DNA from: Pseudomonadota bacterium
GTDB lineage: Bacteria; Pseudomonadota; Alphaproteobacteria; SP197
Length of the DNA stretch: 47,780 nucleotides
Direction: 5' to 3'
Assembly (NCBI GenBank): GCA_027592745.1
Contig: JAQCLG010000010.1
Location: 1-47,780, forward strand
Shown: positions 7,062 through 14,539 of the stretch, in pieces
How positions within the stretch are numbered: position 1 is the first letter of the stretch
Layout: every line of letters starts with the position of its first letter
Position numbers and translations under genes: made by a program
The notes under the pieces: model-generated
Database searches by the model: none
Seen by the model: the letters and a program-made list of their open reading frames with translations, nothing else
What the model was told of the DNA's origin: nothing

Positions 7062-8285
7062 TCAGCGCTTCATGCCGTGCAAATGGCTGAGCCAGGCAAA
7101 GACCGCGCCGGCCAGCATCATGACGACGACGGGCATGGCGCTGTCGGAAAGGGTGTGACCGACGATGGTCATCAGGATCGCGCCGATGCCCATCTGCAGC
7201 GACCCGGCCAGGCCCGAGGCCGTGCCGGCGCGGGTGGGATCGACGCTGACCGCACCGGCAAAGCCGTTGGGCATGGAAAAGCCGTTGCCGACCGAGATGA
7301 CACCCGAGATCAGGAAGAAGCCGTGGAGGTCGAGTTGGCCGGCTAGGGTCACCCCGAGCAGCACGAAGCCGCCGATCATCGAAAGCACGGTGCCGATCAT
7401 GATCATGCGGTCCGACCCGACACGCCCGCCGATCCGCCCGGAAATGAAGTTGCCGGCCATGTAGGAGCCCGAGATCATGACGAACCACCAGCCGTAACCC
7501 GAGGCCGTGCGGCCCATGATCTCCTGGGCGACGAAGGGCGCACCGCCGAGGAAACTGTAGAAGCTGGCGGTGGTGAAGGCGACCTGCAGGGAATAGCCGC
7601 GGAAGCGGCGCATGCGCAGCAGCACGCCGAAACCGCCAAAGAGATCGGCCATGGTCGTGGTCGGGCCGCGGTCGTGGTGGGTTTCGTGCAGCAGCAGGGC
7701 GCAGGCCGCCGTGGTGAAGACGCCGAAGGCGAGCACGAACCAGAAGATCGCCTGCCAGCCGTACCATTCGTAGAGGTAGCCGCCGATCACCGGGCCGGCC
7801 ATGGGGGCAACGACCATGCCGGCGGTGATGTAGGCGATCATCTGCGCGGCCTTCTCGCGCTCGTAGATGTCGCGCACGATGGCGCGGCTGAGCACGATGC
7901 CCGAACAGCCGCCGAAGGCCTGCAGCGCCCGGCCCATCAGCAGCGCGCCGATGTCCCAGGCAAAGACGCAGCAGACCGTGCCGACCAGGAAGAGGCCGAA
8001 GCCGGCGAGCAGCACGGGGCGCCGCCCGAAGCGGTCCGACAGCGGGCCGTAGACGAGCTGCCCCACCGTCAGGCCGATCAGGTAGACCGTGAGCGAGGCC
8101 TGCACCGTGCCGTAGTCGACGCCGAAGACATGGACCAGGCCCGGCATGGCCGGAACCAGCACCTGGAGCGCGAAGGAGGACAGCGCCGTCGCGACGATCA
8201 GGACCCAGAGCGGCGGAATCCGGCGGATGCGCGCATGCGTTGCATCCTCCATGGCTTCTGCGGGATGATGGCGCGGGACGTGCAT
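7062..8285 (-). CDS. MFS multidrug transporter, Bcr/CflA type
   Basis: This 407-residue inner-membrane exporter has 12 predicted helices. The MFS signature GPLSDRFGRRPVLL sits between helices 2 and 3 (about residues 78-91), and SRAIVRDIYEREKAAQ is typical of the Bcr/CflA drug:H+ antiporter branch. The start at 8285 is favoured by AAGG at good spacing; an internal ATG at 8252 is an alternative that removes 11 residues. The gene leads a minus-strand run with the quinone oxidoreductase and GNAT genes and is divergent, by about 40 bases, from the interrupted histidine kinase gene. The transported compound is not evident. Confidence 0.92.
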   Translation of the reverse strand: MHVPRHHPAEAMEDATHARIRRIPPLWVLIVATALSSFALQVLVPAMPGLVHVFGVDYGTVQASLTVYLIGLTVGQLVYGPLSDRFGRRPVLLAGFGLFLVGTVCCVFAWDIGALLMGRALQAFGGCSGIVLSRAIVRDIYEREKAAQMIAYITAGMVVAPMAGPVIGGYLYEWYGWQAIFWFVLAFGVFTTAACALLLHETHHDRGPTTTMADLFGGFGVLLRMRRFRGYSLQVAFTTASFYSFLGGAPFVAQEIMGRTASGYGWWFVMISGSYMAGNFISGRIGGRVGSDRMIMIGTVLSMIGGFVLLGVTLAGQLDLHGFFLISGVISVGNGFSMPNGFAGAVSVDPTRAGTASGLAGSLQMGIGAILMTIVGHTLSDSAMPVVVMMLAGAVFAWLSHLHGMKR

Positions 8286-8325
8286 GAAACCTTCTTCGTC
8301 ACGTGGAACACGGGCGCCACAGGAC

Positions 8326-9645
8326 ATGACGCTGCAAGGGCCTTCTCCGGGCGCGAAGGGACCGGGCAAGCTGGACGACTGGCACACTCGGCTCGATCGC
8401 GTGTTTGCCACCAGCGCCGATCTTTACCGCGATCTGTTCCGCCTGTCTCCGGCGCCCATCACGCTGGAGGACTGGAGCAGGACGAAGCTGCTGATCGAGG
8501 AGATCAGGGCGGCAGCCCCGGGCTCGGCCGAGGCCCATGTCCTTGCCCATCCCGAACTGGCCGAACGTTTCGTGCTGAGCCAGGACTACATCGTCGCCAA
8601 CCCGGCGATGCTGGAGCTCAACCGCGCCGACCGCGAGGAGGGTTACGCCGACTACCTGGTCGCCTTCGAACCCCGCATGGTGCCGCCCATCGCCCGCCTG
8701 ATCGCCGACCTGGTGGCGGGCAACACCGACGTCGTCTGGCCCGAGATGGCCTGCAAGGCCTACGACGGATCCGAGATCGTGCTGCGCGGCCGGGTCTTCA
8801 TCCCGCCCGACCTTCTCGACACCTGGTCGCTGGCGGTCTCGACCTTCGAGGACATCACCGCCGAGCGCGAGGACGAACGCCAGCTGCGCGAGGCGCGCGA
8901 CAACTACGAGCGGGCCAATGCCGCCAAGGCCGAGTTCGTCGCCAACATGAGCCACGAGTTCCGCACGCCGCTCAACGCCATCATCGGCTTTGCCCAGGTC
9001 CTGCGCGACGAGATGTTCGGCCCCCTGGGCAGTCCGCGCTACAGCGGCTGCATCGCCGACATCCTGGAGAGCGGCGAACACCTGCTCGACCTGGTCAACG
9101 ACATCCTGGACCTCGCCAAGGCCGACGCCGGCCGGCTGGAGCTCGAGGAATCGGTGGTCGATGTCGCCGTGCTGGTCGAGCAGTCGATGCGCTTCGTGCG
9201 CGACCGCGCCGCCCGCGAGCGCATCACCATGGAGACAAGGCTGGACCGCGACATGCCCCGGCTGCTGGGCGACAACCGGCGGCTGCGCTAGCTGCTGCTC
9301 AACCTGCTGACCAATTCGGTGAAGTTCACGCAGAGCGGCGGCACCATTGTCACCAGTGCGGGCTCGGGGGAGGAAGGCGGCTTCGCCATCACCATCGCCG
9401 ACACCGGGATCGGCATGAGCCCCGAGGAACTGCTGATCGCCATGGAACCCTTCGGCCAGATCCAGCGCCGCAGGCGTGGCCGCCTGGAGGGCACGGGCCT
9501 AGGCCTGCCGATCGCCCGGCGCATCGCCGAGATGCACGGCGGCGCCCTGGAGATCGAGAGCACACCGGGCAAGGGCACCACCGCCCGCCTGCTGCTGCCG
9601 GCCGGCCGCATCGCCCCTGCCCGGGAACGGCTGTCGGGGGACTGA
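8326..9645 (+). pseudogene. PAS-histidine kinase interrupted by an in-frame amber codon
   Basis: The frame encodes a soluble sensor kinase of about 439 residues: a PAS-like segment (about 60-185), a HisKA domain with FVANMSHEFRTPLNAIIGF (the His phospho-acceptor), and a complete ATPase domain with the N-box LLTNSVKFT, ADTGIGM, FGQI and GTGLGLPIARRIAEMHGG. A TAG at 9289-9291 replaces the codon where relatives have Gln (LGDNRRLR then LLLNLLTNSV), consistent with CAG to TAG. No other lesion is visible and the downstream frame is intact, so this is a recent mutation, a sequence error or a suppressed stop. Without read-through the product lacks the kinase core. ATG 8326 was preferred to 8284, which would overlap the divergent MFS start. 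No response regulator gene lies nearby. Confidence 0.85.
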
Positions 9646-14137: not shown

Positions 14138-14539
14138 ATGCTCACCGGCACCTGCCACTGCGGCGCGACCCACTGGACGCTGGAGGGCGACCCCGGCCCG
14201 GCGACGGCGTGCAACTGCACGCTCTGCGTCCGCTACGGCACGCTCTGGGCCTACGACTACGAGAACGAGCGCATCCGCGTGCATGGGCCGCACGCCTCCT
14301 ACACCCGCGCCGACACGGCCGAGCCGTCGCTGGAAATCCTGTTCTGCCCGACCTGCGCCTGCGTCCTCTCCTAGCGCGGCCTCAAGCCCGACGCGCAGGG
14401 CCGCCGCCGCATCGCCGTCAACCTGCGCCTGGCCCCGGCCGAGGCGGTCGCCGAACTGCCCATCGACCACTTCGACGGCCTGGACAGCTTCGACGACCTG
14501 CCACGGGACGGAAGGTGCGTGCGGGACCTGTGGTTCTAG
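14138..14539 (+). pseudogene. GFA-family zinc-binding protein interrupted by an amber codon
   Basis: The frame encodes a 133-residue GFA-type protein with all zinc cysteines (TGTCHCGATHW, ACNCTLCVRYG, FCPTCACV). A TAG at 14372-14374 interrupts it right after residue 78. The downstream frame is intact and family-like (RGLKPDAQGRRRIAVNLRL, then IDHFDGLDSFDDLPRDG) and ends in DLWF before a natural TAG. Relatives have Trp at the interrupted position, so TGG to TAG is the simplest explanation. The AGGAGG site upstream of the ATG is excellent, suggesting recent inactivation, a sequence error or read-through. The truncated product keeps the metal sites but loses the C-terminal half. Confidence 0.85.

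What the first reader, a model, noticed from the sequence alone, without database searches (positions are those of the whole stretch)
9289..9291. Histidine kinase split by a single amber codon at a conserved Gln
Both halves of the PAS-HisKA-ATPase protein are intact, in the same frame, and keep all catalytic motifs. Only TAG 9289-9291 separates the phosphotransfer domain from the ATPase domain (LGDNRRLR | LLLNLLTNSV). Relatives usually have Gln (CAG) there. A decayed gene would be expected to carry more lesions, so this is very recent, a sequencing error, or a stop that is read through.
Basis: partly seen in the sequence, partly recalled or inferred. Interest (0 to 1): 0.6.

Follow-up and report, generated by a model that had tools for sequence, protein, structure and literature searches.

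The report
Recent nonsense mutation in histidine kinase
A sensor-kinase gene in an uncultured alphaproteobacterium is cut by one stop codon, but it is only one of dozens of similar single-stop breaks found in this genome at many different amino acids, so it is most likely an ordinary, recently inactivated gene (possibly an assembly error) rather than a stop codon that the cell reads through.

Summary
TAG 9289-9291 is the only stop in an otherwise intact HisKA-HATPase frame (8284/8326-9645). The syntenic ortholog in the only other genome held of the same genus has CAG (Gln) there, and other aligned homologues have Gln. The stop lies inside the first HATPase helix, just before the N-box. No PAS domain was found.

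The site is not special in this genome. In about 0.97 Mb of this 3.85 Mb metagenome-assembled genome (MAG), 36 mid-gene stops are supported by the sister genome: 24 TAG, 9 TAA, 3 TGA, replacing Q, W, Y, E, K and others. Terminator use is 80% TGA, but the internal mix is close to single-base nonsense changes from this genome's codon usage. No suppressor tRNA was found, no structure follows the stop, and no usable restart keeps the N-box.

Five genes carry two stops (P=0.0025). Intact genes lack the radical changes expected of a uniform error rate. Real, recent gene inactivation is favoured over assembly error, though error at this site cannot be excluded without reads. The RF1 gene falls in a contig gap, so a weakened-RF1 reading stays open but unlikely.

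The parts
8284..9645 (+). interrupted histidine kinase gene (HisKA + HATPase_c), start ATG 8284 or ATG 8326, unresolved
   Evidence: ortholog and synteny
8923..9132 (+). HisKA dimerisation/phosphoacceptor domain with H-box MSHEFRTPLNAI
   Evidence: Pfam PF00512, residues 214-283 of the 8284 frame
9268..9603 (+). HATPase_c domain (N, G1, F, G2 boxes)
   Evidence: Pfam PF02518, residues 329-440 of the 8284 frame read with TAG as Gln
9289..9291 (+). in-frame amber stop TAG where the sister genome and other homologues have Gln (CAG/CAA); followed by C
9319..9645 (+). longest restart frame after the stop (GTG, 108 aa); it begins after the N-box Asn residues, so it could not give a complete ATPase domain

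Best explanation
A single C-to-T change turned a conserved Gln codon (CAG) into TAG in this lineage. Translation should stop after the phosphoacceptor domain, giving a kinase fragment without its ATPase: a recent loss-of-function allele. It is one of many single-nonsense losses in non-essential genes of this genome (roughly 50-60 per Mb of coding sequence in the sample). Shown: the stop, the Gln in relatives, the intact flanks, the genome-wide excess and its spectrum. Inferred: that the base is real, and that the protein is truncated in the cell.
For: Single stop, intact frame, Gln in relatives. The syntenic ortholog (87% nucleotide identity) is open. 36 sister-supported mid-gene stops in ~0.97 Mb, at Q, W, Y, E, K and other residues. 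Under equal-rate models the stop types match one-step nonsense from codon usage (24/9/3 observed, 23.9/6.9/5.2 expected). Five genes have two stops, P=0.0025 against random placement, and one has a stop plus a frameshift. Annotated hit genes are dispensable kinds: TauD, PutA, phytochelatin synthase, ABC permease, hydantoinase, DUF1254, response regulator. The same-genus and same-family samples give fewer candidates. The 3' part has not decayed yet.
Against: Frameshift-like breaks are fewer than nonsense breaks (2 against 45 raw candidates, with detection 41% and 74%; the unbiased ortholog comparison narrows this to about 6 nonsense and 3-5 frameshifts). Low-coverage assemblies also give excess internal stops over frameshifts (PMC11017572), so error is a live rival. 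dN in the 3' part is higher than in the 5' part (0.192 against 0.093), but the excess falls on the sister lineage. The control genomes G009 and G012 have weaker codon bias, so the codon scan has less power there.
Confidence: 0.68

Rival explanations
1. The TAG is a base error of the metagenome assembly (low depth or mixed strains), as would be many of the other internal stops; the living cell has CAG.
For: The genome is a 263-contig draft, apparently a MAG. Low-quality or low-coverage short-read assemblies make spurious internal stops more than frameshifts, and an inflated count marks poor assemblies (PMC11017572). Nonsense outnumbers frameshifts here. At conserved columns of intact genes this genome has somewhat more unique changes than its sister (282 against 231).
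Against: A uniform error rate able to make these stops would be about 2e-3 per base. That predicts about 12 extra radical one-base changes in intact genes; 13 were seen in each genome (p about 0.007 if the sister count is taken as the baseline, weaker otherwise). The 1.2-fold excess of unique changes is equal for one-, two- and three-base codon differences, as for a faster lineage, not for errors. Two stops in each of five genes and two W(TGG) sites now TAA fit decay better. RpoB shows the fewest unique changes of 11 genomes, 2 with none radical.
Confidence: 0.25
2. Stop tolerance: UAG (and UAA) are partly read through genome-wide, for example through a weak or missing RF1 or an unseen suppressor tRNA, so the full kinase is still made.
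For: 33 of 36 supported internal stops are TAG or TAA, the RF1 codons, while 80% of ordinary terminators are TGA. Only RF2 is found in the assembly; the sister genome has both. The sequence past the stop is still intact.
Against: The TAG excess is what codon usage predicts for random nonsense changes; the TGA shortage has P 0.04-0.22 depending on the model. RF1 is absent because contigs C128 and C194 both end inside its neighbours, leaving a ~1.5 kb gap where prfA should be. TAG (60 of 343) and TAA (10) are still used as ordinary terminators at rates not far from the sister's. About 38 tRNAs were found, none with anticodon CUA, UUA or UCA. The replaced residues are mixed, so no single reassignment fits.
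Confidence: 0.04
3. The gene is now two proteins, phosphoacceptor and ATPase, that work in trans, as in split CheA3/CheA4 of Rhodobacter sphaeroides (that precedent from general knowledge).
For: Both domains are intact.
Against: The first usable start after the stop is GTG 9319, past the N-box Asn residues, without a visible ribosome-binding site, so the second piece would lack a catalytic motif.
Confidence: 0.02

Closest known systems
Nonsense pseudogenes of bacteria in early gene loss
   Same: Single in-frame stop, otherwise intact frame, intact ortholog in a close relative; stops arise from codons one base away (Trp, Gln, Tyr), as noted for pseudogenes in PMC8629427.
   Different: Frameshifts seem fewer than usual; no host-restricted lifestyle was shown for this organism.
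Spurious pseudogenes from low-coverage assembly (Cooley and Wright 2024, PMC11017572)
   Same: Elevated count of internal stops relative to relatives; draft assembly.
   Different: Stops pair up in some genes, and intact genes do not show the matching excess of radical one-base changes.
Stop-codon reassignment (for example TAG=Gln in some phages)
   Same: TAG at a Gln site.
   Different: TAG, TAA and TGA all occur at Q, W, Y, E and K sites, TAG is still an ordinary terminator, and no suppressor tRNA was found.

Membership tests
HisKA/HATPase_c sensor histidine kinase | HisKA and HATPase_c domains in one frame | tested here: met
   PF00512 1.7e-20, PF02518 2.4e-26 when read through
HisKA/HATPase_c sensor histidine kinase | unbroken coding sequence | tested here: not met
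   TAG 9289
   no Pfam match in the N-terminal 210 residues at E<=0.01
nonsense pseudogene | stop present where orthologs are open | tested here: met
   sister ortholog open, CAG
nonsense pseudogene | relaxed selection after the stop | tested here: not met
   4 lineage changes against 10 in the sister 3' of the stop: no acceleration, so recent at most
nonsense pseudogene | stop present in the living population | not testable with these tools
   reads not held
stop-codon reassignment / suppression | cognate suppressor tRNA | tested here: inconclusive
   none among about 38 tRNAs, but Phe, Asn, Ile, Ala(tgc), Leu(cag) and Thr(tgt) tRNAs are also missing, so the set is incomplete
stop-codon reassignment / suppression | one amino acid at the reassigned codon | tested here: not met
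   Q, W, Y, E, K and others at TAG/TAA
stop-codon reassignment / suppression | loss of RF1 | tested here: inconclusive
   prfA lies in a contig gap
programmed stop read-through | TAG conserved in relatives and/or stimulatory structure | tested here: not met
   Gln codon in relatives; downstream fold weaker than shuffles, z +1.54

The most novel reading that the evidence does not exclude
The lineage has a weakened or lost RF1 (its gene is the one that falls in the contig gap), so UAG and UAA are leaky, and nonsense changes to these two codons accumulate in genes that are still made in part, this kinase among them.
Probability: 0.03. Interest if true: 0.8.

Novelty: already known. Interest (0 to 1): 0.15.

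Why it matters
Mostly as a caution. A clean single amber codon at a conserved Gln looks like recoding until the rest of the genome is counted: here such stops are common, fall on many residues and follow codon usage. If real, the genome is a useful case of early, mostly single-hit gene loss; if not, its internal stops flag an assembly to be treated with care.

Tried and rejected
A first codon model trained on the longest open frames was contaminated by antisense frames and gave misleading stop counts; replaced by a GC-by-position seed with retraining. Early signs that other kinases of this genome carry internal TGA were gene ends: the HATPase domains there are open. An apparent loss of RF1 was traced to a contig gap. 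Apparent TGA stops in the ortholog scan (L096, L078, L103) and one TAG (L110 9652) lay in upstream antisense extensions, not in genes. A TAG/TAA-only pattern looked like suppression, but codon usage explains most of it. RpoB alone was too short to exclude a 0.2% error rate.

Full report
Observation. The frame from ATG 8284 (or 8326) to TGA 9643 holds one stop, TAG 9289-9291. Read through, it gives HisKA (8923-9132) and HATPase_c (9268-9603); each half also scores alone. The stop replaces a Gln eight residues into the HATPase domain, in the helix LRxLLLNLLTNSVKF that carries the N-box, so any product is an H-box fragment without ATP binding. Pfam gives no PAS domain.

Relatives. The only other genome held of the genus (G001, 82% aa) has CAG at the site and an open frame; the locus is syntenic over 9 kb at 87% nucleotide identity. 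Correctly aligned homologues from the family and class have CAG or CAA. No genome examined shares the TAG.

Is it special? The window is one contig of a 3.85 Mb, 263-contig draft, apparently a MAG. I scanned about 0.97 Mb of it with a codon-usage Viterbi model that lets stops pass and asked the sister genome for the aligned codon. Thirty-six mid-gene stops are supported: 24 TAG, 9 TAA, 3 TGA. The sister residues are mainly Gln, Trp and Tyr, with Glu, Lys, Arg, Phe, Gly and Ala. With a detection rate of 74% this is roughly 50-60 per Mb of coding sequence. At first thresholds the same scan gave 94 raw candidates per Mb here, 36 in G001, 6 and 22 in two family members; raw counts include ordinary same-frame gene ends, and the last two have weaker codon bias.

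Recoding? Ordinary terminators are 273 TGA, 60 TAG and 10 TAA, so the internal mix is very different. But TAG is the stop nearest to this genome's common codons. One-step nonsense changes predict 66-68% TAG, 12-19% TAA and 14-22% TGA, against 67, 25 and 8% seen (chi-square P 0.015 to 0.46 by model). Mixed residues exclude a single reassignment. No CUA, UUA or UCA tRNA was found among about 38, though the set lacks several ordinary tRNAs. Only RF2 is in the assembly (named from its sequence and its neighbour shared with the sister's second copy), but hemA runs to the end of contig C128 and prmC to the end of C194, so prfA lies in a gap. There is no downstream structure.

Error or decay? A published study shows that low coverage inflates internal stops more than frameshifts (PMC11017572), so this must be taken seriously. 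Against it: five genes hold two stops (P=0.0025) and one a stop plus a frameshift; two Trp codons of the sister are TAA here, two bases away; the annotated hit genes are dispensable kinds; and at conserved columns of intact genes the radical one-base changes number 13 in each genome, where a uniform error rate would add about 12 here. The modest excess of all unique changes (282 against 231) is spread evenly over one-, two- and three-base codon differences, which suits a faster lineage. These tests speak about the genome as a whole; a local error at 9289 stays possible.

Age. On this lineage the part after the stop has 4 polarised changes against 10 on the sister lineage, so no decay has yet set in. 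The stop is recent, if real.

Verdict. A recent nonsense allele, ordinary in kind; assembly error second; read-through unlikely.

Noticed in passing
window 14138-14539, stop 14372-14374: A second broken gene in the same window: a GFA-family (PF04828) small protein with one in-frame TAG after FCPTCACVLS, where a Trp would be expected from memory of the family; no sister ortholog was found.
   Followed up: partly
G000 contigs C128 (end 32000) and C194 (end 21667): The assembly gap between hemA and prmC removes exactly the RF1 gene prfA, which the sister genome has in between.
   Followed up: partly
L081 7230-9987, L083 6430-7892, L225 3912-4245, L232 7758-8343, L235 18458-18791: Five genes (PutA, an unknown protein, di-haem oxidoreductase, ABC permease, DUF1254 protein) each carry two in-frame stops.
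   Followed up: partly
L094 1-8001 (contig C255): A second histidine kinase of this genome is also interrupted by TAG (Trp in the sister at L094:6154), and the HATPase family search reports a TAG within its HATPase match.
   Followed up: partly
L219 10248-10320 (contig C7): An acetoacetate decarboxylase-like gene has both an in-frame TGA (Trp in the sister) and a frameshift.
   Followed up: partly
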